Below, piece after piece: positions 27,711 through 47,770 of a stretch of DNA of 54,209 bases. The notes under the pieces were generated by a model. That model was not told the DNA's origin. It made no database searches and saw only the letters and a list, made by a program, of their open reading frames with translations. The translations under genes and the position numbers were made by a program. How positions within the stretch are numbered: the stretch's first letter is position 1; each line of letters begins with the position of its first letter. Source of the stretch: Lachnospiraceae bacterium (GTDB lineage Bacteria > Bacillota > Clostridia > Lachnospirales > Lachnospiraceae); assembly GCA_017634975.1 (NCBI GenBank), contig JAGBMJ010000142.1, positions 1 to 54,209 on the forward strand, in the 5' to 3' direction.

Positions 27711-27748
27711 ATTATACCAAAAAAGCGGCGGTCTGAAAAGACCACCGC
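27711..27748 (-). terminator. Terminator fused to promoter (copy 1)
   Basis: Stem GCGGCGGTC/GACCACCGC (27725-27733, 27740-27748) with loop TGAAAA, then a T-tract on the minus strand. The stem starts at the stop codon of the amidase/peptidase gene. Minus-strand TTTTCA in the loop (27739-27734), a 17-bp spacer containing the T-tract, and TATAAT (27716-27711) form a promoter for the lipoprotein gene. Confidence 0.8.
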
Positions 27749-30096
27749 TACTCTGTACGCAATGCTTCCATACAGACCGCAGCCCATGTCTCCCGGTTCC
27801 GTTCAAATATCGCGGGAAACTCGCTGCTGTCGAGCGGACAGGTATACCGCCCTATTTCCAGAGTAAAGCCGGGCTTATTATACGAAAGATGCACCAGCTC
27901 GCCAAAGCTTCCGTACTCCGATCGCTCTGTCGGTTTCGCCGTTGCAGAAAGATCGTACCGGCAGATGCCGGACACAAGCTGCGCCCACTTCTTACATGCA
28001 TTGGCGTTTTCCTTCTCCATACCATAAGAATCAAAATAGATGACCTGCCCCTTCGCATGGTAATTGATATAACACTCAAAATCCTCCGACGATGCCATCG
28101 ACAGGATCGTCCTTGTTTCCGGCTCGGATTCCGGTGCTGTCCCGCGATAACTCCCCATCGCCGGTACCGTTTTTCCCCAATCCGCTTCCCAGCCGATATT
28201 AAAATTCCGGTTGATATCCACACCGGCAGCATTGGCTTTCCAAAGCCTCAGATATTCCTCATAGGATATATCCTCTTCGTTCAATTTTGCACTTTCCGCT
28301 ATATTACCTCTGTAATTGTCATACCATGCCGTTTCCTCACTGCTGTATCGGATGTAGATAAAGTTTTGTTTTTCAGCCGCATAAGCCGCTCTCAATACAG
28401 CCGCATATTCCTCCGTAACACCCGCTTCCCCATACTGGCTGATCGAAACCCCATCCGGATTGGTCATCGGCATAATATAAAATGCACAGTCCTCCAAAAA
28501 CTGCCCATATCCGATACCGCCGTAACTTCCCGTATCATAATGATCCGCATAGTATTCGATCATCTTCATGACCAGCTGGGATGTCATATATTCGCGGCCA
28601 TGAATGCCTGCCGTGATCAGGAATTTATGCTCCGCCTCCGGATTTCCCAGGATCAGCAGCGGAATATCCCTGCCACACAGGCTTTTTCCCGCATTCTGCC
28701 AGACCAGGATATCACTGTACTTCTGACACAACTCTCGGATATCCTCCATCATGGCATCATAGGTATACCGGTCATCGGTAACATCCACCACATCCGATAT
28801 GTTCTGCAGATCCGCTGCATAATCCACCGGAACAACCAGATCCGACTGCACATATCCTTCCAGTCCGTTTCCGATATCCGTAACGTGAAGAAAAGTCACA
28901 TTCTCTTCCGCTTCCAATACTCCGTCAAAAGCCAGATAGGTTCCGAACGGTATCTCTTCCACCGTTTCACTTAAAGATACCGGTTCTGTTTTCATCGAAA
29001 GAGAAGTCAGCGGAACGGCCTCATAGATCACATATCCTTCCTCCCGAAGTGCCGTAAACCGGTCCACCAAAGCCGGATACTCCGCATCAAAAGATACTTC
29101 TTCTTTTTCAGGCGGGATCTCTTCGAACGTATCCCGTATATACGCATCGTAATCCCCGGCTTCTTTTCCGAAAAACAGATCGATGCCCCGCATTATCCCG
29201 ACCGCATTCCGGTATAACTGCTCTGTCGACCGGTCACTGAGCTTATCTCCCAGCTCCAGATCTATACTCGGTATGGTCGAATACGACGTCTGTGTCAGAT
29301 CCAGCGGCAGGGAACCGTTGTCGTAGATCTTTATCTCCTGCTCCTTCAGTCCTGCAATGATACTGTCTCCCAACCCATGGCTCTGCTCCCAGGTATCGAA
29401 TACCGGATACATATTTCTGTAGCTTTCCACCTCCGGTACCGAACAGTAAAATGCGCCCTTATCCTTTTCCGAACTGTCCCAATGCAGGGAGATATGACAA
29501 TCCGCATAAGCATTTGCCAGCACTGTCCTGGCAACATTATCCAGCTGGACATCCTCCGATTCACGGATCATCAATACACTGTATCCGGCCTCCAGCAGCA
29601 GATCCTTCAGGATCACCGCCTGCTGCAGTGTTACTTCTCTTTCTGCAGTTCCGTCCGGAAATTCCATACCGCCAGAAACCGCCGTCGCCGTCAGTGAACC
29701 TTCCGCTGTGGATCCCGCAGTCACTTTCAGAGTTCCGTCGGGATGACACAGCGTTTTCACCTGTGTCCCGCCGTTTGTCCCATGTCCTGCATTCACACAG
29801 ACAACGATATCCCCTTTTTCTGTCCCGCTATTATGATACAGCAGTGCCGGATCGGTATGGATCGCGGAATTTTCGGCAAATTCCATCGAATCCTCCAGGA
29901 ATACTTCTTCCACGGTCATTTCGCTGACGAGCGTATTTTCCGATCCGCTCAACTGCGGTTTTTCGTCCGTAATTATATTCTCGGACACCGGATACGGTTC
30001 TGTCGTTTCCGGGATCTGCTCCCGCACTCCGCAGCCGGCAAGCAAACACAGGATTCCTGCGATTACATATGTATATTGTCTTCTGTTAGCTTCCAC
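27748..30096 (-). CDS. Lipoprotein: N-acetylmuramoyl-L-alanine amidase - SH3 - M14 carboxypeptidase fusion
   Basis: 782 residues from a GTG. A lipobox LLAGC (C22) ends the signal peptide. Residues about 85-315 are an Amidase_3 domain (VVCVNAGHGTNGG, then DVQLDNVARTVLANAYADCHISLHWD, then IPSIDLELGD), which cleaves the amide between muramic acid and L-Ala. Residues about 325-410 look like an SH3-type domain. Residues about 425-782 are an M14 zinc carboxypeptidase: HGRE with zinc ligands H499 and E502, GVDINRNF, YHAKGQ for the third ligand, and catalytic E747 in FTLEIG. The two catalytic parts could strip and trim peptidoglycan stem peptides in sequence. It is the second gene behind GH31 (44-bp gap). 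Confidence 0.85.
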   Translation of the reverse strand: MEANRRQYTYVIAGILCLLAGCGVREQIPETTEPYPVSENIITDEKPQLSGSENTLVSEMTVEEVFLEDSMEFAENSAIHTDPALLYHNSGTEKGDIVVCVNAGHGTNGGTQVKTLCHPDGTLKVTAGSTAEGSLTATAVSGGMEFPDGTAEREVTLQQAVILKDLLLEAGYSVLMIRESEDVQLDNVARTVLANAYADCHISLHWDSSEKDKGAFYCSVPEVESYRNMYPVFDTWEQSHGLGDSIIAGLKEQEIKIYDNGSLPLDLTQTSYSTIPSIDLELGDKLSDRSTEQLYRNAVGIMRGIDLFFGKEAGDYDAYIRDTFEEIPPEKEEVSFDAEYPALVDRFTALREEGYVIYEAVPLTSLSMKTEPVSLSETVEEIPFGTYLAFDGVLEAEENVTFLHVTDIGNGLEGYVQSDLVVPVDYAADLQNISDVVDVTDDRYTYDAMMEDIRELCQKYSDILVWQNAGKSLCGRDIPLLILGNPEAEHKFLITAGIHGREYMTSQLVMKMIEYYADHYDTGSYGGIGYGQFLEDCAFYIMPMTNPDGVSISQYGEAGVTEEYAAVLRAAYAAEKQNFIYIRYSSEETAWYDNYRGNIAESAKLNEEDISYEEYLRLWKANAAGVDINRNFNIGWEADWGKTVPAMGSYRGTAPESEPETRTILSMASSEDFECYINYHAKGQVIYFDSYGMEKENANACKKWAQLVSGICRYDLSATAKPTERSEYGSFGELVHLSYNKPGFTLEIGRYTCPLDSSEFPAIFERNRETWAAVCMEALRTE

Positions 30097-30140
30097 TCTT
30101 CACCTGTCCGCAATTCTGGAAGCCCCTGATCCGTTCTCCG

Positions 30141-32471: not shown

Positions 32472-32524
32472 AAATACCCCCTTTGTTTATGATGATTGCT
32501 CAGATTTACCTTCCTGCATTTTTC

Positions 32525-32563
32525 ATCATAACATAAAACCGGTGGTCTGAAAAGACCACCGGT
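32525..32563 (-). terminator. Terminator fused to promoter (copy 2)
   Basis: Perfect 10-bp stem ACCGGTGGTC/GACCACCGGT (32538-32547, 32554-32563), loop TGAAAA, T-tract on the minus strand. TTTTCA in the loop, 17-bp spacer, TATGAT (32530-32525). It ends the Rpn gene and should start GH31. Confidence 0.8.
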
Positions 32564-32609
32564 TAGGGATTATCTACCACCTCATTTGTATTCAGAACCA
32601 TCATTCTTT

Positions 32610-33569
32610 TTAAGCCATCACATCGGCATGCAAAGCTTTCAGTACTTTATCCAGATCATAATCCGGCGCATATTCCTCTGCTGTATTACAGATTGCCTGC
32701 ACACGGCTGATATCTTCCTCCACCTCATCCGCGATCTGCTCTATCTCCATCCCTCGGCGGAGTTTTTTACAGATCTGTTCAATAAGATGTCGATCCTCTC
32801 CCTGCTCTATACCCTTATTCCAATAATAGTCCAGCGCACTGCCCATACTTTTATTTCCTCCTCTCGCCCCTGTAAATTTCTTATCGTCAGCTACTTTCGC
32901 AAACTTTACATCACCGGTCAATCTGCTCATCAGTCGCAACACTTCCCTAACGTGTTTCATACTATCGCGCGAGCCGGTATATCTGCCTGTCTTGCGCATC
33001 TGCACAAAATAATCCGCCACATACTGAAAATCACTTTTAAACCCTTTGACCTGCTCATCACTCAGCCATGCGATCTCAAAAAGATTGATCGGATAATCCG
33101 GAACAAATGACTTCAATTCCGGCAAAAGTTTGTCTCCAAGCATTTGATGCAAAGTCTTCGGTTTGTCCCAATGCTTTTCGTAATTAAAATACAAAACCAG
33201 CGTAACCACAGGAAACACATTTACTATCTTCTTCCGGTTACCATTCACATCCGTCTCGTACCGGATCTGATCCCTGTAGGAAGCTCCATCGTATCCGATC
33301 ACTCGCACCGGCATATCATTTTCTGCCTGTGATTCATTTTCCAGTCCCAAAAGCGCGATCCTGATATCGTGATTCTTCCAGTATTTTGCTGCATCCCGTT
33401 CCAGTTCGCGGAAACCATTTTCTCCCTGGTATGTATTATGCGGTGCGGTCGTCTCCAGGTCTTCCTCCCGCACCTGTTCCTTTCCGTTAAAGATGAGATT
33501 ATTGACAATATCCGCAAATACATCCTCATACGTAAACAGTGTCTTTTCTAACACATCTTTCTCGCCCAT
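32610..33569 (-). CDS. Rpn-family recombination-promoting nuclease / PD-(D/E)XK transposase-like
   Basis: 319 residues. The N-terminal EDVFADIVNNLIFNGKE and the IRIALLGLENESQAENDMPVRVIGYDGASYRDQ segment match the Rpn/PD-(D/E)XK nuclease transposase families (PF04754/PF12784 group). The segment contains the E-x-x-Q-like catalytic region. Family members cut DNA and raise RecA-independent recombination in E. coli. A helical C-terminus and a Gln/Glu-rich tail follow. A LexA box sits inside its promoter, so it is probably SOS-induced. Rpn genes are often found as variable cargo; an IS630 fragment lies next door. Confidence 0.8.
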   Translation of the reverse strand: MGEKDVLEKTLFTYEDVFADIVNNLIFNGKEQVREEDLETTAPHNTYQGENGFRELERDAAKYWKNHDIRIALLGLENESQAENDMPVRVIGYDGASYRDQIRYETDVNGNRKKIVNVFPVVTLVLYFNYEKHWDKPKTLHQMLGDKLLPELKSFVPDYPINLFEIAWLSDEQVKGFKSDFQYVADYFVQMRKTGRYTGSRDSMKHVREVLRLMSRLTGDVKFAKVADDKKFTGARGGNKSMGSALDYYWNKGIEQGEDRHLIEQICKKLRRGMEIEQIADEVEEDISRVQAICNTAEEYAPDYDLDKVLKALHADVMA

Positions 33570-33613
33570 GTACTACTCCTCCATATACTTATTTCCGCAT
33601 GAGATATAAGTAT

Positions 33614-33642
33614 ATGATAGAACATACGTTCGCTGTTGTCAA
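33614..33642 (-). promoter_or_regulatory. Rpn promoter with LexA (SOS) box in the spacer
   Basis: Minus-strand TTGACA (33642-33637), 17-bp spacer, TATCAT (33619-33614). The spacer holds CGAACGTATGTTCT (33632-33619), a near-perfect match to the Firmicute LexA box CGAACRNRYGTTYC. Confidence 0.8.
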
Positions 33643-33649
33643 TATGCAT

Positions 33650-33928
33650 TTTGGGGAAGTGCAGAACTATCTTGCAACAAAGCCTAACGGAGGATTCGTA
33701 TTTGTTTTTACACCTACACATGGATCTTGGCTTAACCTCATCGAAAGCTTCTTTAGCAAAATGACTAAGCAGATGCTGCGGGGTATACGCGTCAATTCAA
33801 AACAGGAACTTGAAGAACGCATATACCAATACTTCGAGGAGGTCAACGCAGATCCAGTGGTATATCATTGGTCATATAAACTCGATGAGATTTCCGAAAA
33901 AGAAGCTCGTAAGCATATGGCCAGTTAA
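33650..33928 (+). pseudogene. IS630-family transposase, C-terminal remnant
   Basis: The open frame from about 33650 encodes the C-terminal third of an IS630 DDE transposase: TPTHGSWLNLIESFFSKMTKQ (with the final catalytic Glu of the DDE triad), then a helical end (RIYQYFEEVNADPVVYHW). No N-terminal HTH or first two Asp segments are found upstream; the sequence there is the Rpn promoter. It is therefore a decayed fragment, and no terminal inverted repeats were recognised. It lies divergent to Rpn and convergent with the AAA/PD-(D/E)XK gene. Confidence 0.85.
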
Positions 33929-33965
33929 TTATTTTTCAATGTACTGGTATCCATCCCAACTGCCG

Positions 33966-35567
33966 TCATGCCCTCTTTTCTATCCGGCAGCTATATTTTC
34001 CGGTCTTTTTATTGTAATTGATCCCCACCAACAGCAGTTCCCCTTTATAGTCTGTCAATGCGCCTGCGTATTCCTTATCCCGGATCTGTTTGATAGCCGC
34101 CTTCGCATTACGGTTCCACTTCAGCTCTACCACCATCGCCGGGTGCTCACCCTCATTTCTCGGAATAAAGACAATATCCGCAAAACCCTTGCCTGCCGGT
34201 AATTCCCGTTTTACATAGTAGTATTTCCGGGCGGTAAAGTAACTCATCATCACCGCACAAGCCAGGGCATTTTCATCATGAAAATTTATGATAGATGCAT
34301 AGTCCTGCTGTGACTTCGCGATGGTCTCTGCGATCCGTTTCGTATCTCCCTCCCAGGTTGCCTTCAAAAGCGCATCCGAATGATCCAGCGCATCCTGAAT
34401 ATCCGTCCAGTCGCCGACACGCACCGCACTCTCAAACACATCCCGTACCTCTTCGTTTGGGATAAACGCTTCTCCTGTTTCCGTATCATAGCCCAGATAG
34501 CCCATGTGGATCAGGGCTGTCAGCACATCGTCCTTTGTCTTATAATGCGTCAGGTCGTTCTGGAAGGTCGCTGTATTCACCACCCGGCGCTCCCCTGCGA
34601 TCATGGCGACCACATCATCCTTCAGGCCTGCCTTGTTCAATTCGATATAGTCATTCACCCCGGCAAAAGCACCGGTATTTTTCCAATAACTGCCCAGTTT
34701 TCTTCTCTGAAATGCCTCCACCACGGAATTGGGATTGTAGATATGGATCTGCTCATGGTCGTCCCAGTCCCCGGCAACCGGCATAAGGTATCCATCATAC
34801 CACTGCCTGATGTTTTCGATGGTCTGGGAATAGTACTCGCAAAGCCCCCCGATCTCCTCCTCTGTAAATCCGAAAAAAGGCATCAATGCCCCGGGTGCGG
34901 TCATGGTATATTCCCAAAAGTTATTCAGCGCGGATTCCCCCTTAACCTTCTTGATCGGCAGGATCCCCGTGATATAACCCAGCGCCAGGAACTGCTTGGA
35001 TTCCTCCGTTTTAAAGAAGCCGCGCAGGTACTTTAAATAGTCCAGTATCAGCTTTTCATCGTCCTTCGCGTCCCGAATGATGCATTCCCATTCATCAATG
35101 ACGATGATGAACTGCCTGCCCTCCCTATGATATACATCATAGATCGCCGCTGCTGCATTCGCATATTCCTTGCCGCAAAGATATGGAAACTCTTCTTTCA
35201 GGGATCCCATAATCGTCCCATCCATCAACGGGATCACATCCTCCGGTGTCTTTGCCGCATTGAAAAAACTGGCCACATCAAAATGCACTACATTATACTT
35301 ATTTAAGTGATCCTCAAAATCCGGCGCCTTTGCGATCTCATAGGGTGCAAAAAGCTCCCGCGAATCACATCCCCGGCTATAGTAGGCATCGATCATCCCT
35401 GCTGCCATGGACTTGCCGAAACGGCGCGCACGGCTCACCGCAAAATAACGGCTTTCTTTGTTTATATTTTTATTCAGGATGTCCAGCATTCCTGTTTTGT
35501 CAATATATATTTCCGATCGTACCGCCGATAAAAAGCTGTTATTCCCCGGATTTACATAGGTTCCCAT
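33966..35567 (-). CDS. AAA-ATPase-like protein with C-terminal PD-(D/E)XK nuclease domain
   Basis: 533 residues from an ATG behind GGAGG. The N-terminus (FVDKTG-like IYIDKTGMLDIL, then SRARRFGKSMAAGMI as the P-loop) is PF09820 'AAA-ATPase_like'. The C-terminus (GKGFADIVFIPRNEGEHPAMVVELKWNRNAKAAIKQI) is a PD-(D/E)XK domain, with the D...E-x-K triad intact. Such proteins are numerous and variable in gut anaerobes; function is unproven, with nuclease or phage-related defence roles proposed. Its promoter is the fused terminator element at 35.6 kb. Confidence 0.85.
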   Translation of the reverse strand: MGTYVNPGNNSFLSAVRSEIYIDKTGMLDILNKNINKESRYFAVSRARRFGKSMAAGMIDAYYSRGCDSRELFAPYEIAKAPDFEDHLNKYNVVHFDVASFFNAAKTPEDVIPLMDGTIMGSLKEEFPYLCGKEYANAAAAIYDVYHREGRQFIIVIDEWECIIRDAKDDEKLILDYLKYLRGFFKTEESKQFLALGYITGILPIKKVKGESALNNFWEYTMTAPGALMPFFGFTEEEIGGLCEYYSQTIENIRQWYDGYLMPVAGDWDDHEQIHIYNPNSVVEAFQRRKLGSYWKNTGAFAGVNDYIELNKAGLKDDVVAMIAGERRVVNTATFQNDLTHYKTKDDVLTALIHMGYLGYDTETGEAFIPNEEVRDVFESAVRVGDWTDIQDALDHSDALLKATWEGDTKRIAETIAKSQQDYASIINFHDENALACAVMMSYFTARKYYYVKRELPAGKGFADIVFIPRNEGEHPAMVVELKWNRNAKAAIKQIRDKEYAGALTDYKGELLLVGINYNKKTGKYSCRIEKRA

Positions 35568-35588
35568 AGGTATACCTCCTACGCCTTC

Positions 35589-35627
35589 ATCATAACATAA
35601 AACCGGCGGCCTGAAAAGACCACCGGT
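35589..35627 (-). terminator. Terminator fused to promoter (copy 3)
   Basis: Stem 35602-35611 with 35618-35627, loop TGAAAA, two G-U type pairs. TTTTCA (35617-35612) in the loop, 17-bp spacer, TATGAT (35594-35589). Ends the SNF2 gene and should start the AAA/PD-(D/E)XK gene. Confidence 0.78.
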
Positions 35628-35642
35628 CTGTCATGAATTTAC

Positions 35643-38600
35643 TTATTCTTCCAAAAGCTGCAGCAGTTCTTCGCGATCCAACACACTGCTGGATACCCCC
35701 TCCGCTGAGAGGATATCGTCTGCCAGTTTGGCCTTTGCTTCCTGCAGTTTCAGGATCTTTTCTTCTATGGTACCTTTAACGATCAGTTTATAAACCGTCA
35801 CGATATTCTGCTGTCCGATGCGGTGTGCACGGTCGGTTGCCTGATTTTCCGCTGCAACATTCCACCATGGATCATAATGGATCACCACATCCGCTCCGGT
35901 AAGATTCAGTCCCGTACCGCCGGCCTTTAAGGAGATCAGAAATACCGGCGTCTCATCATGATTAAACGCATTCACCAGTTCAATGCGCTTCTCTTTCGGA
36001 GTACTTCCGGTAATCTTGTAGTACGCGATCCCGCTCTTCTTCAGATCCTCCTCCAGATGCTCCAGCATCGTTGTAAACTGCGAAAATACCAGCGCTTTAT
36101 GTCCGGAATCCGCAATGCTCTCCATCATATCCATACACATCTGCCGCTTTGCTGACTCTCCGTCATAGTTTTCCAGAAACAGGGACGGATCGCAGCAGAT
36201 CTGCCGGATGCGGGTCAGCTCTGCAAGGATCTCGATCTTTCCTTTCCGAAAATCCTCGTCCCCCTGCGCATGGATCTTTTTCTTCATCTTGATCACCTGC
36301 GCATCATACAGCTTCTGCTGTTTGCTGTCCATTTTTGCAAAACGTACTTCTTCCAGTTTTTCCGGCAGATCCTTCAGCACATCCTTTTTCAGTCTCCGTA
36401 ACACAAACGGACTCACCATACGTTTCAACCGCAGGGAAGCTTCCTCATCGGCATCTTTTACCACCGGCTGCTCCAGTTCATCCCGGAAGGCAGGATAGTC
36501 ATACAGAAAGCCCGGCATAAGGAAATCAAAGATACTCCACAATTCCGACAGACGGTTTTCGATCGGCGTACCGGTCAGGGCATACTTCGTCTGCGCCCGG
36601 ATCAGCTTCACCGATTTGGTAGCTGCAGTCGTATGATTCTTGATATACTGCGCCTCATCGATCACCATAAAGCGGAACTGCTTCTCTTCATACTCGGCAA
36701 TATCCCGTTTCAGCAGATCATAAGACGTGATCCATACGCCGCCAGTTGCCTCTCCTCCGATCACGCTCCGTCTTTCTTTTTGCGTTCCGGCGATCACTGT
36801 GACCGGGATCTGCGGAGCAAATTTCCCAAACTCCTCTGCCCAGTTATAGACCAGCGACGCCGGACATACGATCAAAGAATCCTGTTTCGACATATCTTCT
36901 GCCGCAAACACTGCAGAAAGCACCGCGATCACCTGCAGTGTCTTTCCAAGTCCCATTTCATCTGCCAGTATCCCGCCAAAGCCGTACTGATCCAGAGTAC
37001 GCAGCCACCGGTATCCCGTCTTTTGATAGCTTCTCAATATACCATCCAAAGTCTCCGGCACTTCAAAATCCGCATCCTCCACAGCCTTGAATCCCTTGAT
37101 CAGTTCACGGAACTTCCGGTTGCGGTTTGCCGATACATCTCCGATCTCTTCCAACATCTTATCCAGATACAGCGCACGGTATGCCGGGATATGCATCTTT
37201 CCTTTTGCAAATTCCTTCGGCGAAATTCTGAGCATTTCCATCATACTGCCCAGTTCCTCGATGGTTTTGTTATTCTCAAGGTTCAGAAAACTTCCGTCTT
37301 TCAGACGCACATAACTCCGCTTTCTGCGATAGCCAAACAGGATATCAGACACCTCATCCTGAGTCAGATCTTCACTGCTGACAGTCAGATCCATCAACCC
37401 GCTGTCAATGGAGACACCCATCTGGAATTTCACGCCTCTTCCCCGCCGCAGACGATTGAAACGCTCTGTCGCATGCACTTCCCCGATCTGCATCATCTCC
37501 GGGATGCCCCGGAACAGCAGGTCATACAATTCCCCATCTTCCACACGCTTTACCAGAAATTTCTCCTGCCGGTCATACGAACTCACATATTTCATCGCCA
37601 CATCCATGGCAGCGCACTCCGCGTCAAAATCGCGAAACTGCTGAAGCTTCTTTCCGGGGCTCTGTTCATCCAGCAGATAGGTCAGCGGAAACGATTTCTT
37701 TCCATACAGTACCTCCGGTCTGCAGAGCACAAAATGATTCTCATAATCAATATAGTAACGAAATACCGGTTTCGGCGGAATATGCTTTCGGATCTCATCC
37801 TCATTATCGATGGTGACTTGCGCAAAAGACTCCAGTTTCGGCAGGGTATTGTAAAAGAAATCCGCCATAAACCTTCTGCCGATCCGCAGATCAAAGCGGG
37901 AACCCATCGTATATTCGTACAAAATCCTGATATCCTTCGTTGCGTTATCGGACATCCGGCAGAATCTCTTTTCATCCAGGAAATAATAACGGTTCTGACC
38001 GCGAAAGACCAGAGGACGTTCCCCCTGCACACGGATCCCGTGAAAGACCCCCTGCTCCATATCCGGAGAGATCTGCAGAGTCAGATGTAATTCTCCTTCT
38101 TCGCACCGATATAACGTTTTCCCCTTCTCACCTTTTCTGCTGATCTCCAGATTTCCCGGATATGCCGTCTGAAACAGATCATCCAGATTTTTTCCGAAAA
38201 GCGGCACCTTGCTTTTGATCCTCGGATAATCTACCTCCCATCTGGATTTTTCCTCAAGATGATTGATCTGCTGCTGCTCTTCTTCCAGCACTCCCTCAAT
38301 ATACTCCAGCCATTCGGAATCCTTTCCCTGGAAGCCGTCTCTGCGCATCAGTATTTCCGTAGACTTACCAAACTGCTGCACTTCTCCGCTCTGAATACTC
38401 TTTATGGTTTCCGACAAACTGTTGATCTTGTACAGCTTATCCGTTCCGATCCGAAAAGACGCAGATAAGTGTCCTGCTTCATCCGCCGATAGATACGGCT
38501 CCAGATGTATCTGCGGGATCATCTCCTGTTTTTCGCTTTTATCACTAATTGTATGCTGTGAGGCTCCCATCGCCTTCATCAGGTTCCAGGATGCCCGGTC

Positions 38601-39512
38601 TGTTTTATCCCCGGGATTTTCTTCCTTCAGATAATCAAAGAGAAGCAGCATTGCAGCCATTTCATGTTCGCAAAGTGTATGCCCGATACGGGATTTATTC
38701 GGCTTGCGATTACAATTCCAATCGGAACAGCGACATTCAAGGATATGATGCGCGTCAAAACTAAGCGTAACATTCGAGCTATACGAATAATAATACCGGT
38801 TTCTCTCCTCCTCATTCGGATAGAAACTGATCCGTGAAGTCCCATGCAGACTGCTATCCATCCAATCTATATGGATTTCTGTCTTCAGCTCAGATCTTAA
38901 TTTCCTCATCCGCATCTTTCCGGCGGCCAGTTCTTTCGGAGTATAAACCAGCTCTTTCATCATATCATCCGGATAAAAATACCGATATTCCTCTTCTACA
39001 AAAGTATCCTCTTCACCTGTTTCATCTTCCGGTTTCTTTTCCGCTTCCTGTTTCAGAAGCTTCAAATTCTTCAGCCCCTGTGTCAGATCCGGATGGTATT
39101 GGGGATTCTTCTTATAGAAATCGTCATCCGACTCATCTCCGGAAATGTCTTTTTTCGACCTTTCTTCCTTCCGCTCCTCTTTTTCGCGGGTATCCCCTTC
39201 GACCTCTTCCTCTGTCCAGTCTCCTCCCAAAAGGTCAATATCGCCCTGTTCCTGTTCAATAAGATAGATCATGGCCGCCACATGTCTGCAGGCTTTTTTC
39301 TCCATCCAGTCCGAACATTCACACTCTGTGGAATAAACCTTTCCACCCATAAAATCAACAGACGTATGATAATTCCTGTCATCTCTCACGACTGCCGAAT
39401 AACTGTCCGTATCTTCATCATAGGTCAGTTTCTTTGCCTTTCCGCTTTGAAAAAGAATTTTTCCTGCCTCCAGATCTTTTTTATTGAATGCCGATTGCCA
39501 TTTATTTCCCAT
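35643..39512 (-). CDS. SNF2-family helicase with two SWIM zinc fingers
   Basis: 1289 residues. SWIM finger 1 is C64-x-C66...C75-x-H77 (CECSDWMEKKACRH); a second CxC...CxH finger sits near residue 260-290 (ECRCSDWNCN then LCEHEMAA). The centre matches the bacterial SNF2-associated region. The helicase core (about 830-1289) shows ADEMGLGKT, VIDEAQYIKN, TGTPIENRLSELWS, and the C-lobe motifs ALVFSQFTTMLEHL, SLKAGGTGLNL and DRAHRIGQ. Bacterial members track on DNA and remodel protein-DNA or RNA polymerase complexes; the exact role here is unknown. A single gene between two fused terminator/promoter elements. Confidence 0.93.
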   Translation of the reverse strand: MGNKWQSAFNKKDLEAGKILFQSGKAKKLTYDEDTDSYSAVVRDDRNYHTSVDFMGGKVYSTECECSDWMEKKACRHVAAMIYLIEQEQGDIDLLGGDWTEEEVEGDTREKEERKEERSKKDISGDESDDDFYKKNPQYHPDLTQGLKNLKLLKQEAEKKPEDETGEEDTFVEEEYRYFYPDDMMKELVYTPKELAAGKMRMRKLRSELKTEIHIDWMDSSLHGTSRISFYPNEEERNRYYYSYSSNVTLSFDAHHILECRCSDWNCNRKPNKSRIGHTLCEHEMAAMLLLFDYLKEENPGDKTDRASWNLMKAMGASQHTISDKSEKQEMIPQIHLEPYLSADEAGHLSASFRIGTDKLYKINSLSETIKSIQSGEVQQFGKSTEILMRRDGFQGKDSEWLEYIEGVLEEEQQQINHLEEKSRWEVDYPRIKSKVPLFGKNLDDLFQTAYPGNLEISRKGEKGKTLYRCEEGELHLTLQISPDMEQGVFHGIRVQGERPLVFRGQNRYYFLDEKRFCRMSDNATKDIRILYEYTMGSRFDLRIGRRFMADFFYNTLPKLESFAQVTIDNEDEIRKHIPPKPVFRYYIDYENHFVLCRPEVLYGKKSFPLTYLLDEQSPGKKLQQFRDFDAECAAMDVAMKYVSSYDRQEKFLVKRVEDGELYDLLFRGIPEMMQIGEVHATERFNRLRRGRGVKFQMGVSIDSGLMDLTVSSEDLTQDEVSDILFGYRRKRSYVRLKDGSFLNLENNKTIEELGSMMEMLRISPKEFAKGKMHIPAYRALYLDKMLEEIGDVSANRNRKFRELIKGFKAVEDADFEVPETLDGILRSYQKTGYRWLRTLDQYGFGGILADEMGLGKTLQVIAVLSAVFAAEDMSKQDSLIVCPASLVYNWAEEFGKFAPQIPVTVIAGTQKERRSVIGGEATGGVWITSYDLLKRDIAEYEEKQFRFMVIDEAQYIKNHTTAATKSVKLIRAQTKYALTGTPIENRLSELWSIFDFLMPGFLYDYPAFRDELEQPVVKDADEEASLRLKRMVSPFVLRRLKKDVLKDLPEKLEEVRFAKMDSKQQKLYDAQVIKMKKKIHAQGDEDFRKGKIEILAELTRIRQICCDPSLFLENYDGESAKRQMCMDMMESIADSGHKALVFSQFTTMLEHLEEDLKKSGIAYYKITGSTPKEKRIELVNAFNHDETPVFLISLKAGGTGLNLTGADVVIHYDPWWNVAAENQATDRAHRIGQQNIVTVYKLIVKGTIEEKILKLQEAKAKLADDILSAEGVSSSVLDREELLQLLEE

Positions 39513-39608
39513 GTGTCCGATTCCTTTCCCGCTTACCCATCATTGCCATCTCCCAATCTGCAATGATACGCCAGACATAACAGTTCCGAATAGTTACCAA
39601 CAGCCTTC

Positions 39609-39647
39609 ATCATAGCATAAAACCGGTGGCCTGAAAAGACCACCGGT
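39609..39647 (-). terminator. Terminator fused to promoter (copy 4)
   Basis: Stem 39622-39631 with 39638-39647, loop TGAAAA. TTTTCA (39637-39632), 17-bp spacer, TATGAT (39614-39609). Nearly identical to the copy at 35.6 kb over about 45 bp, including flanks. Ends the GH5 gene and should start the SNF2 gene. Confidence 0.78.
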
Positions 39648-39673
39648 CTGTCACGAATTTACATGGAACCATT

Positions 39674-41773
39674 TCACTTCAAACCGCTTGCTGCACTCAG
39701 GGTGATACCGTTTGCGCCCAGCGGGATCTGGTGATCAAGGCCTACAAACTTGCCGTTCTGCTGCCACAATACCTCTTTGACAAAGGTGTATTTCTCATTG
39801 TCCCAGGTCGTAAAGTCATCCTTCAAAAGTCCGCCGGTATCACCGGAGTTTGCATTCAGACACCAGAAGGTGTGGTTCAGATGATACGTCTTGATCAGCT
39901 TGCGCATATGCGTCATCCAGGTCAGGTTCGGCTCCGTCATAAATCCACCCCATTCACCGATCAGCAGAGGTGCGGTATTGGTCTCGTAAATATAGAACCA
40001 GTTGTCATGCCAGCAGTCCTTCATCAGACTGTCGTAACTGTAACCGCCTTTGAACCACGGCTGTTCGTATACGGTCGGACCGTAATCGTGTGGAGAGTAC
40101 ACAAGCTTATTCTGATACTGTCCCAGCTGCACCGGATAATCTGCCACGCCGCGCAGGTTTCCGCCCCACCAGTTGAAGTAATAGTCCGCGCTGTTCTGAG
40201 AATGATAATCGCTGTTGGTCTTGATATCGATCGGATAGATTTCCGTACCTTCTACCATGACCAGTACATTCGGATTCTTGCCGAGTACGGTCAGAGCTGC
40301 GCGCTCTGCCATATATTTCCAGTTGTTTGCATCCTTCGAACCGTTCCAGATCGCCGCATTTTTTCCTTCATTCGGTTTGCCATGCGGCTCGTTCTTCAGA
40401 TCGTATGCAATGATCGTATCATTGTTCTTGTAGCGATCTGCACACCAAGCAAGTGCTGCCAGGTACTGATCCGCCGTTACTTTCTGGGTGCACCACATAT
40501 TTGCGTTGTGTCCCATTGCATCGGTCTCAGCGCTGTGGATATCGATCATTACCTTCAGCCCGTTCGCTTCTGCCAGTGACAGGAAGTAGTCAAAGATCTG
40601 CAGGCTGTTCATCGAATTCAGTTCGGTATTGTATGCATTGTTGTAATTTGCTTTCGGATAATTACCTGCTGCCCAGTCATTCAACAGCTGTGCGGAGATG
40701 GGCACCCGGATCAGGTTGAAACCATGATCGGCGATCGCCTTGACCGTCGGAGCCATCTGGCTGTTCCAGAGACCGTCAAACGTATTGGTACCGGTATTGT
40801 ATCCGAACCAGTTCACACCGGTCAGCCACACTTCCTTGCCGTTCTTGTCCAGGATACGGTGACCATCCGTATGCAGCCAGTCATCGCCCTGTACCGCATC
40901 GGCACAGCGCGTCAGCATCGCACTCACATCCACCGGTGCCTGCTGGTTGTTGTTATTGTTCTGATTATTATTGTTCTGGTTGTTCTGTGCATTTTGTGCA
41001 TTCGCCTGCGCATTCGGATCCACCTTACCGGCTACCACCGTACAGTTTGTTCCGTTCAAGGTCGCGCTCTTTACGGTAACGCTTCCGGTCTTTACACCCA
41101 GGTTGCATCCGCAGTTTACACTGCCGCCATTGCCGATCGCACCGTTATACCCCGCATCGGTAATCGTCATCGTTGTCCCGCTGGTCGTGAAAGTCCCGTT
41201 CCAGCCATCCACTTCTGCCAATCCTTCGATCTCCATCTTCAGCGTCCAGCCCTCGATCTGCGCACCGGAATTGTTGGTGATCTGGAAGTCCACACCGAAC
41301 ATATTCACGTCACCCTTCTGCCAGCTGTTATTTGTTCCGTAAGTCAGTACAAGACCTTTCACTGCAGACGCTCCCGCCGGAGCAGAGGCATCCGTTGTAG
41401 TGGTGGCAGTATTTACCGCGTTCGTTGTATTCGAAGCACTTGTGTTTGTCGCGGCACTTGCCACATCATTGGCATTTGGCATGGCATTACTGGTTACCGT
41501 ACCGGTCGCATCACCGCCTACCGACATTCCGGCTGCGGACTGTTCCACTGTTTCCGAAGCCACTTCCGTCGGCTCCTGCTCTCCGTCCGTGTTCTCCGCG
41601 ACTACTGTCACATCCGTTCCTTCCTGATCCGATGCCGGCTGCAGTTCCGCCACGGCTGTCCCTTCTTTAGCACCGCCCTTCATCGCAACCACCACGACCA
41701 CCATCAGAACGACTGCGGCCACTACTGCGACGATCGCCATGATCAACATCAGTTTCTGGTTCTTTTTGTTCAT
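39674..41773 (-). CDS. Membrane-anchored GH5 cellulase with CBM2-like domain
   Basis: 699 residues from the ATG at 41773, preceded by AAGGAG; an earlier ATG would overlap rsuA. An N-terminal uncleaved-looking hydrophobic helix anchors it. An Ala/Thr/Asn linker, a CBM2-like beta domain (about 145-250; GWTLKMEIEG, GWNGTFTTSG), an Asn/Gln run of about 28 residues, and the GH5 catalytic domain follow. Acid/base E462 lies in YDLKNEPHG and nucleophile E607 in LLIGEWGG; WLTGVNWFGYNTG and NLIRVPIS are also present. Acts outside the cell on cellulose or mixed-linkage glucan while attached to the membrane. It follows rsuA by 29 bp. Confidence 0.92.
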   Translation of the reverse strand: MNKKNQKLMLIMAIVAVVAAVVLMVVVVVAMKGGAKEGTAVAELQPASDQEGTDVTVVAENTDGEQEPTEVASETVEQSAAGMSVGGDATGTVTSNAMPNANDVASAATNTSASNTTNAVNTATTTTDASAPAGASAVKGLVLTYGTNNSWQKGDVNMFGVDFQITNNSGAQIEGWTLKMEIEGLAEVDGWNGTFTTSGTTMTITDAGYNGAIGNGGSVNCGCNLGVKTGSVTVKSATLNGTNCTVVAGKVDPNAQANAQNAQNNQNNNNQNNNNNQQAPVDVSAMLTRCADAVQGDDWLHTDGHRILDKNGKEVWLTGVNWFGYNTGTNTFDGLWNSQMAPTVKAIADHGFNLIRVPISAQLLNDWAAGNYPKANYNNAYNTELNSMNSLQIFDYFLSLAEANGLKVMIDIHSAETDAMGHNANMWCTQKVTADQYLAALAWCADRYKNNDTIIAYDLKNEPHGKPNEGKNAAIWNGSKDANNWKYMAERAALTVLGKNPNVLVMVEGTEIYPIDIKTNSDYHSQNSADYYFNWWGGNLRGVADYPVQLGQYQNKLVYSPHDYGPTVYEQPWFKGGYSYDSLMKDCWHDNWFYIYETNTAPLLIGEWGGFMTEPNLTWMTHMRKLIKTYHLNHTFWCLNANSGDTGGLLKDDFTTWDNEKYTFVKEVLWQQNGKFVGLDHQIPLGANGITLSAASGLK

Positions 41774-41802
41774 AGTGTACTCCTTTCCGAAACCCTTACT
41801 TA

Positions 41803-42495
41803 TCAGGATCTCAGCATCCTTACTTCTTCCTTCGTCAGCTCCCGCCACTCACCTTCCGGCAGCGTGGGATCCAACGTAAGAGTGCCCATAGATAAACGCT
41901 TCAGATATACGACCTTTTTTCCGCAGGCCTCAAACATCCTCTTGATCTGGTGAAACTTGCCCTCATGGATGGTGACCCTGCTTCGATCCGGTGACAGGAT
42001 CTCCAGCCCGGCCGGCATCAGCTGTGTACCATCCGCCAGAGTCATCCCCCCGGCAAATCTTTTCACATCCTCATCCGTGACCGGCAGATCCGTCCCTGCC
42101 AGATACACTTTATCCACATGCGATTTCGGCGCCAGCAGCCGGTGGGCAAGTGCCCCGTCATCCGTGATCAGCAAAAGCCCCACCGTATCCTTATCCAGCC
42201 GTCCGACCGGTGCCAGATTCTTCCGCAGGTTCTCCGGGAACAGATCCAGTACCGTCGGCTGCTTCCTGTCTTCTGTCGCTGTAAGGATCCCGGCCGGCTT
42301 GTTGAGCATATAGTAAAAATGCTCCTGATAACCGATCTGCACTCCGTCCGCTTCCACACAGTCTTCCGCAGAAACTCCCAGACCCGGATCCTTTACCACA
42401 GAGCCGTTTACCTGCACCCTGCCCTTCCGGATCTGTTCCTTTACCTCCGAGCGGGTGCCCACATGCATATCCGCAAGATATTTATCCAGGCGCAT
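41803..42495 (-). CDS. rsuA: 16S rRNA pseudouridine synthase RsuA type
   Basis: 230 residues. An N-terminal S4 RNA-binding domain (MRLDKYLADMHVGTRSEVKEQI) is followed by the RsuA/RluB/E/F catalytic domain with the active-site Asp in PVGRLDKDTVGLLLIT and the family's HQIKRMFEACG. It most likely makes pseudouridine at position 516 of 16S rRNA. It begins 6 bp after the CbiT-like gene and precedes GH5, so all three share a transcript. Confidence 0.9.
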   Translation of the reverse strand: MRLDKYLADMHVGTRSEVKEQIRKGRVQVNGSVVKDPGLGVSAEDCVEADGVQIGYQEHFYYMLNKPAGILTATEDRKQPTVLDLFPENLRKNLAPVGRLDKDTVGLLLITDDGALAHRLLAPKSHVDKVYLAGTDLPVTDEDVKRFAGGMTLADGTQLMPAGLEILSPDRSRVTIHEGKFHQIKRMFEACGKKVVYLKRLSMGTLTLDPTLPEGEWRELTKEEVRMLRS

Positions 42496-42501
42496 ATAGA
42501 T

Positions 42502-43407
42502 TTATGCTCCCGCCTTTGCCGAGATGATCCACGGTGCCGGCTGGTTCTCGAATACGTTCTTGGAAGTCAGCTTGGAGACAGCGATCTGGATGATCGTGAT
42601 GTCTGTGATGCCGAATTTTCCCAGAATATCCCGCATACTTGCCGCCACCTTAAAGTCCAGGGTATAGATCACAAATTCCATGTTCGGATTGATACCCAGC
42701 AGATATTCCAGTTCATGTTCCAGACTGGCCGATGCCACCAGCATCGTCGTATCCGGCACCGGAAGATTTCCCATGGTATCCTCGCCCACGTGATCTACGA
42801 TATTGACATTGCGCAGACCAAACTGGTTCACATTTTCTTCCATGGTTTCACGGTCTGCCTGCTTATATTCCACCGCGATCACGGTTCCTTCCCCGTTCAT
42901 CATAGCCGATTCGACTGCGATGGATTCCCCGGAGATCACGCACAGATTCTTTCCTTCATGGATCTGCATCTTGGAGATCAGTACGGAGCGGATCTCGGAA
43001 CCTACATATTTCACGGAACCGGAAGCAAACTTCTTATTGTCCATGCCAAACTTGATCGTAGATCTGGCATTCGGATTCAGGACGATCATACCGGCCGATG
43101 CATTGATACCACGGTCGATCATCTCCGACACCTTATTGCGCTTGATCGGACCGGCCGGCTCGGATCCTTCATTATAGATCACTTCGCAGTCACCCAGCCC
43201 CACATCCCACATTTTATAGAAGATATCCGCATTACCGGCTTCGGTAAATACCAGTACACAGCGGTGTGCTTCCACCGTCGGAATGAGGTTTTTATTCTTT
43301 TTGGTAATATCCAGAAGCTTGACATGCTCCAGATCGATGTCCGTATTCTCAGAAAAATACTGTAACCAGGAAATAATGCTCTTGTTGGAAAATAACTGAT
43401 TGTCCAT
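42502..43407 (-). CDS. Degenerate precorrin methylase-like (CbiT/CbiE-type) protein
   Basis: 301 residues. The order of parts resembles the C-terminal CbiT-like methyltransferase of cobalamin synthesis: a beta-strand/Ser-rich loop VISGESIAVESAMM, then the acidic VIAVEYKQADRETMEENVNQFGLRNVNIVDH with the usual 'E' and a downstream N..F segment. However, the glycine-rich SAM loop (GxGxG) is replaced by SGESIA, and no other cobalamin gene is in the window. It may be a repurposed or catalytically altered methyltransferase. Its promoter is fused to the terminator of the gene upstream. Confidence 0.6.
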   Translation of the reverse strand: MDNQLFSNKSIISWLQYFSENTDIDLEHVKLLDITKKNKNLIPTVEAHRCVLVFTEAGNADIFYKMWDVGLGDCEVIYNEGSEPAGPIKRNKVSEMIDRGINASAGMIVLNPNARSTIKFGMDNKKFASGSVKYVGSEIRSVLISKMQIHEGKNLCVISGESIAVESAMMNGEGTVIAVEYKQADRETMEENVNQFGLRNVNIVDHVGEDTMGNLPVPDTTMLVASASLEHELEYLLGINPNMEFVIYTLDFKVAASMRDILGKFGITDITIIQIAVSKLTSKNVFENQPAPWIISAKAGA

Positions 43408-43463
43408 ATCTTAACCCCCTTATGGTTTCTTTTTTACCGTTTCCGGTGCTTACAAGCCATATT

Positions 43464-43499
43464 ATTATACCAAAAACGACGGCTTTCTTCAAGCCGCCG
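43464..43499 (-). terminator. Terminator fused to promoter (copy 5, different stem)
   Basis: Stem CGACGGCTT/AAGCCGCCG (43477-43485, 43491-43499) with a T-tract on the minus strand. TTGAAG (43492-43487) overlaps the loop, 17-bp spacer, TATAAT (43469-43464). Same layout as copies 1-4 but an unrelated stem sequence. Confidence 0.75.
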
Positions 43500-43565
43500 C
43501 ATATATTGCTCTGTTACAGGCACACCCCTATAAAATGTATCCCTAGCTGCTCGGAACCGTTACGG

Positions 43566-43796: not shown

Positions 43797-43830
43797 ACGA
43801 TCACCTCCTCCCATCCGCATATCCCTCTTC

Positions 43831-43859
43831 AATATATCGTATTTTTCCGATCTGTTCAA
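43831..43859 (-). promoter_or_regulatory. Promoter of the small hypothetical gene
   Basis: Minus-strand TTGAAC (43859-43854), 17-bp spacer, TATATT (43836-43831). Confidence 0.5.
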
Positions 43860-43869
43860 CGCATAATAA

Positions 43870-43898
43870 TTGAATTTCACTCCGGACACGGCTATAAT
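43870..43898 (+). promoter_or_regulatory. Rubrerythrin promoter
   Basis: TTGAAT (43870-43875), 17-bp spacer, TATAAT (43893-43898). The two divergent promoters are separated by only 10 bp between their -35 boxes, so polymerases would compete. Confidence 0.75.
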
Positions 43899-43936
43899 AG
43901 ACTACATCCAATACTTTTTCCAAGGAGGGTACTCAC

Positions 43937-44476
43937 ATGGCAAACAAATACGCAGGTACACAGACCGAAAAGAACCTTGAAGCTGCTTTTGCAGGCGAAT
44001 CACAGGCCCGGAATAAATACACATACTTCGCTTCCAAAGCCAAAAAAGAAGGCTTCGAGCAGATTGCTGCACTGTTCCTGAAAACCGCAGATAATGAAAA
44101 GGAACACGCAAAACTGTGGTTCAAGGAACTGAACGGCATCGGCGACACCAAAGAAAACCTGGCCGCTGCAGCGGATGGTGAAAACTACGAATGGACAGAT
44201 ATGTATGAAGAATTCGCCAAGACCGCTGACGAGGAGGGCTTCCATGACCTGGCCGAAAAGTTCCGCGGTGTTGCAGCGATCGAAAAGGAACATGAAGAAC
44301 GCTACCGCGCCCTGCTCAAAAATATTGAAATGCAGGAAGTGTTCAAAAAAAGCGAAGTAAAAGTCTGGGAATGCCGCAACTGCGGACATATCGTGGTCGG
44401 CACCGAAGCACCGGAGGTATGCCCGGTCTGCAACCACCCGCAGGCTTATTTCGAAGTACGCGAAAAGAACTATTAA
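43937..44476 (+). CDS. Rubrerythrin
   Basis: 179 residues. The N-terminal four-helix diiron domain shows [16 protein letters not shown] and NEKEHAKLW, then a second EKEHEERY helix, giving the carboxylate/His ligands. The C-terminal rubredoxin-like iron site is [10 protein letters not shown]...CPVCNHPQA. It reduces hydrogen peroxide in anaerobes. Ribosome site AAGGAGGG supports the ATG. Single-gene unit with its own promoter. Confidence 0.97.
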
Positions 44477-44487
44477 TGTGACAAAAT

Positions 44488-45198: not shown

Positions 45199-45903
45199 CT
45201 ATGTCTCATCGAATCTTTTTCTGATATCATCCGGTAAATATTTCACCAACTCTTCTACCAATTCATAAACTTTCGTCCCGGGTGCGATCATAGCCGGCGA
45301 CAGTCCTCTATGCTGATCAATGATTTTTCTTGCGTATCGGATTGCAAGTTTGGGGTTCCCATTCTTTAGCAGCACATCAAAAATATTGTCCATGTTTTTC
45401 GCGTATTTACCGATTCCCAGTTCCGAAAACTTCTTATTGAGGTAATCAATATATTCCGTCCTGTGATTGTTTGATGTATAATAGGAAAAGTGTAAAAGAA
45501 ACCAGAACTCGATACATTCATTACTCCAGGCAGTATGATACTGAATATCTTCACTGATCCGGTTCAATGACGCCGCCCTCTCAACAACACCATTAAATCG
45601 TTCCATAGGAAAACTGTCCTTATCATACACGCACCATATCTGCCCTTTTTCTATCTTATTCTTCTTTACATATTCTTCCGCCTGCCCGATTACCTGAAGC
45701 GTTTCTGCACCGCATGGCTCAATCTCTATCAGCACCATATCTTTGTATACAGGATTAGACTCAATAAACCGCTTAAAACCATTAAAATACTGTGGCTCCG
45801 TCTGTTGTCCCTCACAGAAAATGTAATACCTGTATTCCTTTTGCGCCAGATATTCCTGCCGCCTTTTCTTTTTCCAGGCTTCCATCCCGGCTTTTTTAGG
45901 CAT
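45199..45903 (-). CDS. RloB-like protein (Toprim-like nuclease candidate)
   Basis: 234 residues, matching the RloB family (PF13707). YIFCEGQQTEPQYFNGF carries acidic residues E31 and E36, and IWCVYDKDSF carries D94 and D96, in the order of a Toprim metal site. Its ATG lies inside the end of the RloA gene (8-bp overlap), a hallmark of coupled subunits. RloA/RloB were first noted as restriction-linked genes; an ATPase plus Toprim pairing resembles OLD-like and PARIS-like defence. Nuclease activity is inferred. Confidence 0.8.
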   Translation of the reverse strand: MPKKAGMEAWKKKRRQEYLAQKEYRYYIFCEGQQTEPQYFNGFKRFIESNPVYKDMVLIEIEPCGAETLQVIGQAEEYVKKNKIEKGQIWCVYDKDSFPMERFNGVVERAASLNRISEDIQYHTAWSNECIEFWFLLHFSYYTSNNHRTEYIDYLNKKFSELGIGKYAKNMDNIFDVLLKNGNPKLAIRYARKIIDQHRGLSPAMIAPGTKVYELVEELVKYLPDDIRKRFDET

Positions 45904-47125: not shown

Positions 47126-47218
47126 TCCGATTCTCCTCCCGTTCTGTCTGCCGGCCATTGATCAACACTAATTCTGTTCATTTCCACTCTGATTTATCGA
47201 TTATCCATCTATATTCAA

Positions 47219-47247
47219 ATTATATATCTCTTTTTCTTGTTTGTAAA
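47219..47247 (-). promoter_or_regulatory. Promoter of the RloA-RloB unit
   Basis: Minus-strand TTTACA (47247-47242), 17-bp spacer, TATAAT (47224-47219). It sits in an AT-rich 200-bp tract (47.16-47.40 kb) that has no gene. Confidence 0.75.
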
Positions 47248-47407
47248 TCATTATTTGAGATTATTTCTCATATATTATATTGAAATTATTATAATTGACG
47301 ATTGAGGAATTGACGAATTGCGTATGTTGATTTATGTAAATTATCGCAAATAGAAAATCCTTACACCATTTGAAATAATTCAGACATCACCTGACAGAAC
47401 AAGACCT

Positions 47408-47449: not shown

Positions 47450-47549
47450 AGTCAACATCACACGAACCCTTGAACGCTAAAGCAAAAAGTGAGTATTTCA
47501 AAACGATTCCACCATATAACAGTTAAGAAAAGAGGACTGCTCCCGTATA

Positions 47550-47759: not shown

Positions 47760-47770
47760 TTAGCAACATA

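What the first reader, a model, noticed from the sequence alone, without database searches (positions are those of the whole stretch)
27711..43499. Five intrinsic terminators fused to the next gene's promoter
At 27.7, 32.5, 35.6, 39.6 and 43.5 kb the terminator loop holds the -35 (TTTTCA or TTGAAG), the T-tract lies in the 17-bp spacer, and TATAAT or TATGAT follows. Spacing is exactly 17 bp at all five. Four share nearly the same stem (ACCGG.GG.C ... GACCACCGG) and flanks, so the cassette looks copied; the fifth uses a different stem, so the layout itself seems selected. Readthrough or hairpin folding could then be tied to re-initiation.
Basis: partly seen in the sequence, partly recalled or inferred. 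Interest (0 to 1): 0.75.

Follow-up and report, generated by a model that had tools for sequence, protein, structure and literature searches.

The report
Terminator hairpins that double as promoters
In a rumen bacterium and its relatives, the stop signal of one gene and the start signal of the next are built from the same forty or so bases; the idea of such overlaps is known, but this compact, repeated form looks new and is easy to test.

Summary
On the minus strand, five junctions carry a GC-rich hairpin, a T-tract and an extended -10 (TGnTATRAT), with the -35 hexamer over the hairpin loop and exactly 17 bp between hexamers. The four-copy stem occurs nowhere else in the genome; the layout does. 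A covariance model matches at E<=0.001 in 15 of 35 genus genomes, 10 of them not used to build it. Of 41 sites examined, 38 follow a same-strand gene. Stems change with pairing kept. Beside one orthologous gene, a relative has the layout on an unrelated stem. Best reading: a composite gene boundary, terminator of the upstream gene and sigma-A promoter of the next. Post hoc, the layout is over-represented in front of AAA-ATPase_like (PF09820) genes. In the window, three copies punctuate a 7.2-kb block that a sister genome lacks. Terminator-promoter overlap is already published in concept; I did not find this form in my paper searches. Coupling of termination to re-initiation is possible but untested.

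The parts
27711..27749 (-). Site 1: hairpin 27749-27724, -35 TTTTCA 27739-27734, T-tract, extended -10 TGGTATAAT ending 27711; overlaps the stop codon of the M14 peptidase/amidase gene and precedes a gene with FG-GAP repeats
32525..32564 (-). Site 2: hairpin 32564-32537, -35 TTTTCA 32553-32548, -10 TGTTATGAT ending 32525; between the 32610-33569 gene and the GH31 gene
35589..35629 (-). Site 3: hairpin 35629-35600, -35 TTTTCA 35617-35612, -10 TGTTATGAT ending 35589; between the SNF2 helicase gene and the AAA-ATPase_like/PDDEXK_9 gene
39609..39649 (-). Site 4: hairpin 39649-39620, -35 TTTTCA 39637-39632, -10 TGCTATGAT ending 39609; between the GH5 cellulase gene and the SNF2 gene
   Evidence: (promoter only)
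43464..43500 (-). Site 5: hairpin 43500-43476 (different stem), -35 TTGAAG 43492-43487, -10 TGGTATAAT ending 43464; upstream of the 301-aa gene 42502-43407
32485..39677 (-). Block (32610-33569 gene, AAA-ATPase_like, SNF2) carrying sites 2, 3 and 4; absent from sister genome G021, where the cellulase gene runs almost directly into GH31
35583..35642 (-). 60-nt repeat copy around site 3 (95% identical to 39603-39662)
39603..39662 (-). 60-nt repeat copy around site 4
33966..35567 (-). AAA-ATPase_like (PF09820) + PDDEXK_9 (PF08011) gene, the family recurrently found behind such sites

Best explanation
Each site is a composite gene boundary of about 40 bp. Read as RNA, from the upstream gene, it is an intrinsic terminator: hairpin plus U-tract shortly behind the stop codon. 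Read as DNA, the same bases are the sigma-A-type promoter of the next gene: -35 over the hairpin loop, 3' arm and T-tract as the 17-bp spacer, extended -10 at once after the T-tract. Shown by sequence: anatomy, exact spacing, recurrence across the genus, pairing-preserving stem changes, position between same-strand genes, and an independent stem with the same geometry beside an orthologous gene. Inferred: that termination and initiation really occur there. The arrangement keeps neighbours from reading through while starting the next gene; in this window the near-identical copies accompany a block lying between two genes that are adjacent in a sister genome, and give the separated GH31 gene a promoter of its own. 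Whether a terminating polymerase is handed to the promoter is open.
For: Five sites with 17-bp spacing and TGn -10. Site 5: hairpin, T-tract and GGTATA identical in G021 (-10 TATACT for TATAAT) while the upstream flank is unalignable. Of 15 close orthologs of the gene behind it (own included), 4 have the fused form with compensated stems; G010 keeps -35, 3' arm and -10 but lacks the 5' arm and has a separate hairpin upstream; G019 and G025 have a promoter without hairpin; 8 have neither. Alignment of 10 sites: 90 of 90 cells paired, 4 of 9 pairs changed on both sides (3 of 500 shuffles reach that), covariation score reached by 0 of 500. Model R1: E<=0.001 in 15 of 35 genus genomes. Of 37 non-window hits printed, 35 have a -10 of >=5/6, 33 have 17 as best spacing of 16-18, 28 have a -35 of >=4/6. 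Upstream gene on the same strand at 38 of 41 sites. Median stop-to-hairpin 30 nt (25 sites) and hit end to start codon 38 nt (26 sites), for 26 of the 36 non-window sites. G010's GH31 gene: other stem, TTGCGA-17-TATCAT, without TGn.
Against: No RNA data: neither termination nor a start site was observed. -35 matches are modest (4/6 in the window). Outside the window the TGn layout was at 0 of 129 sampled terminators, with one TGn-less case (TTGCCA-17-TATACT), and plain -10 matches show no excess. The model was trained on these sites, so its hits lean to their stem and loop letters, and 5 of the 37 printed hits were training rows and one more a copy of such a row. The structure was drawn from the same sequences, and one of its measures (further pair types, 7 against 7.8 shuffled) is not raised. 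Of the printed hits L234 is no promoter and L233 lacks TGn. At 3 of 41 sites no same-strand upstream gene could be shown (L223, L251, L263).
Confidence: 0.85

Rival explanations
1. Termination-coupled re-initiation (an addition to the best reading): the polymerase that stops at the T-tract is left on top of the next promoter and, with sigma, starts there, so upstream expression primes downstream expression.
For: Terminating complexes would sit over the spacer and -10 (inference). Polymerase retention, diffusion and re-initiation after intrinsic termination are published for E. coli in vitro (PMC6978380, passages; PMC11347151, passages and one section). [quoted passage not shown] Site 5 has 66 nt free before the hairpin and G010 has the two elements apart at the ortholog, so overlap is not simply forced.
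Against: Nothing here measures coupling. Recycling polymerase is estimated to reach promoters up to about 1000 bp away (PMC11347151), so fusion is not needed for it. Occlusion of the promoter by elongating polymerase could equally lower downstream expression.
Confidence: 0.2
2. Simple compaction (a rival for why the parts are fused, not for what they are): a terminator and the next promoter drifted together because T-rich sequence suits both; no function beyond the two parts.
For: T-tract and the T-rich stretch before a -10 are naturally shareable; similar juxtapositions turn up sporadically in other families of the order.
Against: 17-bp spacing with the -35 over the loop recurs on unrelated stems; intergenic space is not minimal at site 5; genus and gene-family bias (the genus and order searches scored different numbers of candidates).
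Confidence: 0.45
3. The palindrome is a protein operator over the -35 and the sites form a regulon.
For: Four window copies share nearly the same palindrome; an operator over -35 would repress.
Against: Stem letters vary with pairing kept, including G-U pairs that matter only in RNA; a T-run follows on the promoter strand in the printed sites; downstream genes are mixed apart from the PF09820 group; position is tied to the upstream stop codon.
Confidence: 0.07
4. A dispersed or mobile palindromic repeat (REP/MITE-like) that happens to contain promoter-like bases.
For: Three near-identical copies at the edges and inside a block absent from G021; association with PF09820 genes.
Against: The cassette occurs nowhere else in the genome at <=3 mismatches; other sites differ in stem and flank; no target duplication was seen at the G021 junction (by eye only).
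Confidence: 0.1

Closest known systems
Inter-operon terminator-promoter overlap (Salmonella tufB-secE, secE-rpoBC, S10-spc-alpha; Brandis, Cao and Hughes 2019, cited in PMC7055797)
   Same: The terminator of one unit overlaps the promoter of the next, contiguous unit; reported to affect expression and fitness.
   Different: Here the overlap is a fixed ~40-bp geometry (-35 over the loop, 17 bp, extended -10) recurring at many unrelated junctions of one genus. The 2019 paper itself is not held, so its exact anatomy was not compared.
Post-termination recycling and re-initiation of RNA polymerase (PMC6978380, PMC11347151)
   Same: Terminator close to a promoter; a candidate mechanism.
   Different: No fused layout was seen in the passages and the one section read.
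Extended -10 promoters of Gram-positive bacteria (recalled)
   Same: TGn before the -10, often with a T-rich stretch upstream.
   Different: Here the upstream spacer is also the 3' arm and T-tract of a terminator.
E. coli frd-ampC overlap (recalled)
   Same: Terminator and promoter signals of neighbouring units intermingle.
   Different: From memory, there the terminator lies downstream of the ampC promoter and acts as an attenuator.

Membership tests
Intrinsic terminator | GC-rich hairpin followed at once by a T-tract | tested here: met
   Five of five in the folding scan, -16.3 to -20.4 kcal/mol
Intrinsic terminator | Lies shortly behind the stop codon of a same-strand gene | tested here: met
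   38 of 41 sites; median 30 nt at 25 sites
Intrinsic terminator | RNA pairing is conserved | tested here: met
   (structure drawn from the same sequences, so leaning); site 5 orthologs
Intrinsic terminator | Transcripts end there | not testable with these tools
   No RNA data
Sigma-A promoter with extended -10 | TGnTATAAT-like -10 and a -35 at about 17 bp | tested here: met
   Five of five; for 37 others, misses told; -35 only 4/6 in the window
Sigma-A promoter with extended -10 | Transcription starts about 7 nt after the -10 | not testable with these tools
   No RNA data
Inter-operon terminator-promoter overlap | The two signals share bases | tested here: met
Inter-operon terminator-promoter overlap | Interruption changes expression of the neighbours | not testable with these tools
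   Needs an experiment
Transcription factor operator / regulon | Letters of the palindrome conserved across target promoters | tested here: not met
   Stems vary with pairing kept; the four window copies alone would meet it
Mobile palindromic repeat (REP/MITE) | Many near-identical copies dispersed in the genome | tested here: not met
   Only the four window copies at <=3 mismatches, listed twice because of a duplicate contig

The most novel reading that the evidence does not exclude
A portable gene boundary: insertion-prone genes, above all AAA-ATPase_like/PDDEXK_9 (PF09820) genes, carry a ~40-bp part that closes the host gene in front of them and opens their own transcription, and insertion leaves further copies that re-promote displaced neighbours. 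Because terminator and promoter are one object, termination of the upstream transcript is physically coupled to (re)initiation of the next.
Probability: 0.2. Interest if true: 0.8.

Novelty: new variant of a known kind. Interest (0 to 1): 0.58.

Why it matters
It gives a natural set of minimal, exactly spaced terminator-promoter fusions, with evolved controls (the same promoter with the hairpin lost, or with terminator and promoter apart, in sister species). That makes a live question testable in vivo: does intrinsic termination feed re-initiation at an adjoining promoter? It also suggests how genes can settle between others without disturbing them, and offers compact insulated junctions for design.

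Tried and rejected
Genome-wide cassette: rejected; the exact stem is confined to four copies in the window. Regulon or operator: rejected as main reading because stems differ with pairing kept and downstream genes are mixed. Order-wide element: R1 matched 22 of 294 genomes at E<=0.01, own genome included. That search scored only 21 candidates a genome with stricter filters, against 150 in the genus search, so the two rates are not strictly comparable. The best others scored 41.8 (same family), 37.1 and 34.5 bits, and several of the 23 printed lack a convincing promoter. Of 80 named orthologous loci searched with R1, two had strong hits, both contigs already known (L269, L270); the rest were 23 bits or less. 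A loose hairpin definition gave 2142 'terminators' in 1.05 Mb, far too many, and was replaced by the strict one. One search left out L057 and L094-L113, fetched because of motif hits. Two scans missed sites through their own limits: one search scored site 1 as zero because the stem was extended into the T-tract (mended); one search misplaced the start of L421, which R1 does place behind such a site.

The PF09820 link was noticed after reading the neighbours, so its test is post hoc. By the script's own rule 8 of 41 loci have the TGn form; I dropped L438 (hairpin only -9.0) and tested 7 of 41 against 2 of 423 background ORFs (p 8e-7). Without the three loci that gave the idea it is 4 of 38 (p 5e-4); against control families 0 of 63, of 70 loci given (p 0.001). 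Without the TGn condition the contrast is smaller: 10 of 41 against 19 of 423. L417 and L422 are near-identical orthologs, some control loci hold the same gene, and background ORFs include spurious ones.

Alignments A1 and A2 were dropped for misaligned rows. The paper searches (listings only, apart from the papers cited) gave the concept but not this form; one search looked for PF09820.
Full report
OBSERVATION. The five sites are on the minus strand. Each has a GC-rich hairpin, a T-tract, and TGnTATAAT or TGnTATGAT; the hexamer 17 bp upstream of the -10 (TTTTCA four times, TTGAAG once) lies over the loop and the top of the stem. Hairpin energies are -16.3 to -20.4 kcal/mol. Sites 3 and 4 share 60 nt at 95%, site 2 shares this at 77%, and site 1 shares only 37 nt at 84-86%.

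HOW UNUSUAL. The four-copy stem with promoter is found nowhere else in the genome at up to 3 mismatches; the hits on contig C103 repeat those of C6, and C103 has the window's length. In 666,922 sampled bases there are 142 strict terminators; a TGn-preceded -10 right behind the T-tract occurs at 5, all in the window (5 of 13 there, 0 of 129 elsewhere). One more outside lacks TGn but has TTGCCA-17-TATACT, and -10 matches without TGn are not in excess there. TTTNTGNTATRAT occurs 45 times in the genome, five times in the duplicate contig. Of 38 distinct flanks, 7 follow a clean strong hairpin: the five, C145 (no good -35) and C52 (TTGAAT 17 bp from its -10; its -11.9 kcal/mol is within the range of the 456 shuffles, lowest -13.5). 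A further site on C118, repeated on C137, has TTGCAA-16-TATACT with the -35 over the loop. So the layout is real and clustered here, yet not general in this genome.

CONSERVATION. In G021 (same genus) the site 5 hairpin, T-tract and -10 are the same apart from TATACT for TATAAT, while the sequence upstream cannot be aligned. Fifteen close orthologs of the gene behind site 5, own included, were compared. Four (G000, G021, G006, G032) have the fused element, with paired changes in the stem. G010 keeps the -35, the 3' arm as spacer and the -10, but not the 5' arm, and has a separate hairpin with T-tract further upstream. G019 and G025 have a promoter with a similar spacer and no hairpin. The other eight have the gene behind another gene whose end looks alike in all eight (a 2-oxoacid oxidoreductase beta subunit by recall; no call named it there), without the element. 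On ten aligned sites all 90 cells are paired, with changes on both sides at 4 of 9 pairs (the structure comes from these sequences, so the percentage paired leans, and the measure 'further pair types' is not above shuffles). Letters in the arms vary; pairing does not. That speaks for an RNA hairpin.

BREADTH. A covariance model from ten sites found matches at E<=0.001 in 15 of 35 genus genomes and at E<=0.01 in 18, though G001's best match at the weaker level (L234) is no promoter; ten of the fifteen contributed no training sequence; only 150 candidates a genome were scored. Thirty-seven non-window hits were printed with context, out of 47 matches (ten left out: site 2 itself, a repeat of L227, and reverse-strand matches; several hairpins match on both strands). 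Of the 37, 35 have a -10 of at least 5/6, 33 have 17 bp as best spacing among 16-18, and 28 have a -35 of at least 4/6; L234 is not a promoter and L224's -10 was mis-assigned by the script. Five of the 37 were training rows, one more (L250) a copy of one, and the model prefers loops like those it was trained on, so this is partly circular. Sites found without it show the same geometry: C142 (TTGAAG-17-TATAAT), C1 (TTGCGG-17-TATCAT), G031 (TCCACA-17-TAAAAT) and G019 C78 (TTGTGA-17-TATAAT; also a weak model hit), two in G029, and the GH31 gene of G010 (TTGCGA-17-TATCAT, no TGn, on an unrelated stem). The last is the ortholog of the gene behind site 2. In 294 genomes of the order, drawn evenly and scored less deeply (21 candidates each), 22 including the own genome had a match at E<=0.01; the best others scored 41.8, 37.1 and 34.5 bits.

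POSITION. At 38 of 41 sites (5 window, 36 others, some orthologous or duplicate) the upstream gene is on the same strand. The automatic ORF-based count gave 33; five were corrected after reading the frames. Three are unclear or opposite (L223, L251, L263). For 26 of the 36 non-window sites, the hairpin starts a median 30 nt behind the stop codon (25 sites with an upstream ORF) and the next start codon lies a median 38 nt beyond the hit (26 sites). This is where a terminator of one gene and a promoter of the next belong.

THE BLOCK. G021 lacks window 32485-39677: its cellulase gene runs almost directly into GH31. In the window this stretch holds the SNF2 helicase gene, the AAA-ATPase_like/PDDEXK_9 gene and the 32610-33569 gene (no Pfam match), with sites 4, 3 and 2 in front of SNF2, of AAA-ATPase_like and of GH31. 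Site 2 thus supplies a promoter to a gene that in G021 has no room for one of its own in that gap. Whether the block was gained here or lost in G021 was not determined.

GENE-FAMILY LINK. Pfam scans of 9 window genes and of 20 downstream and 20 upstream neighbours elsewhere showed mixed functions, but AAA-ATPase_like (PF09820) genes behind site 3 and 3 of the 20. By coordinates, ten model hits of relatives (E up to 0.11) lie directly in front of PF09820 genes, plus site 3 itself; PF09820 has 86 matches, fragments and the duplicate contig included, in 20 of 35 genomes. By a model-free test of 41 loci (15 own, 26 relatives; two more at contig ends were dropped), 8 have the TGn form, of which I keep 7, against 0 of 307 ORFs in the own background and 2 of 116 in five relatives, and 0 of 63 loci of control families. 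Without the TGn condition: 10 of 41 against 19 of 423. The link was noticed first and tested after; without the loci that gave the idea it is 4 of 38 (p 5e-4).

MECHANISM. Shown by sequence: shared bases, exact spacing, pairing, position. Inferred: termination in the T-tract and initiation behind the -10. The terminating polymerase would lie over the spacer and -10 of the next promoter, so either occlusion or hand-over is possible. Re-initiation after intrinsic termination is published in vitro (PMC6978380, passages; PMC11347151, passages and one section). A terminator-promoter overlap that affects expression and fitness is described for Salmonella tufB-secE (one passage of PMC7055797, citing Brandis et al. 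2019, which is not held). I put boundary function at 0.85 and true coupling at about 0.2.

NOVELTY. The concept of overlap is known. The compact -35-over-loop form with fixed spacing, recurring in one genus of rumen Lachnospiraceae (kind of organism from record titles of orthologs) with covarying stems, did not appear in the listings, on PF09820, listed no paper whose title or abstract start mentions such a boundary. New variant of a known kind.

Noticed in passing
window 32485-39677: A 7.2-kb block (SNF2 helicase, AAA-ATPase_like/PDDEXK_9, and a gene without Pfam match) sits between cellulase and GH31, which are adjacent in G021.
   Followed up: partly
G000 contigs C6 and C103; C118 and C137: The assembly seems to hold the window twice (C103 has exactly the window's length and the same hits), and the C118/C137 site is repeated; genome-wide counts must allow for it.
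   Followed up: partly
L014:2246, L020 (- 787), L024 (- 4666), L026:17090, and L033 upstream of its match: A terminator-like hairpin GCGTTCTGC..GCAGAACGC recurs several times in the genome: possibly a dispersed terminator repeat.
   Followed up: no
L404 (G000:C11 near 5500): An AAA-ATPase_like gene with TTGAAG-17-TATAAT (TGn before the -10) but no hairpin by eye: the same kind of promoter without the terminator, like the site 5 ortholog in G010.
   Followed up: no
window 43811-44481: About 0.6 kb present here but not in G021.
   Followed up: no
window 45199-52494: An ATPase gene, a small partner gene and two DNA methyltransferase-like genes; they look like defence/restriction genes by recall from the translations, no family call made.
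   Followed up: no
L223 (G010:C12), 558-601: In G010 a fused site lies in front of a GH5 cellulase with CBM_2, the same domain pair as the window's cellulase that precedes site 4.
   Followed up: no
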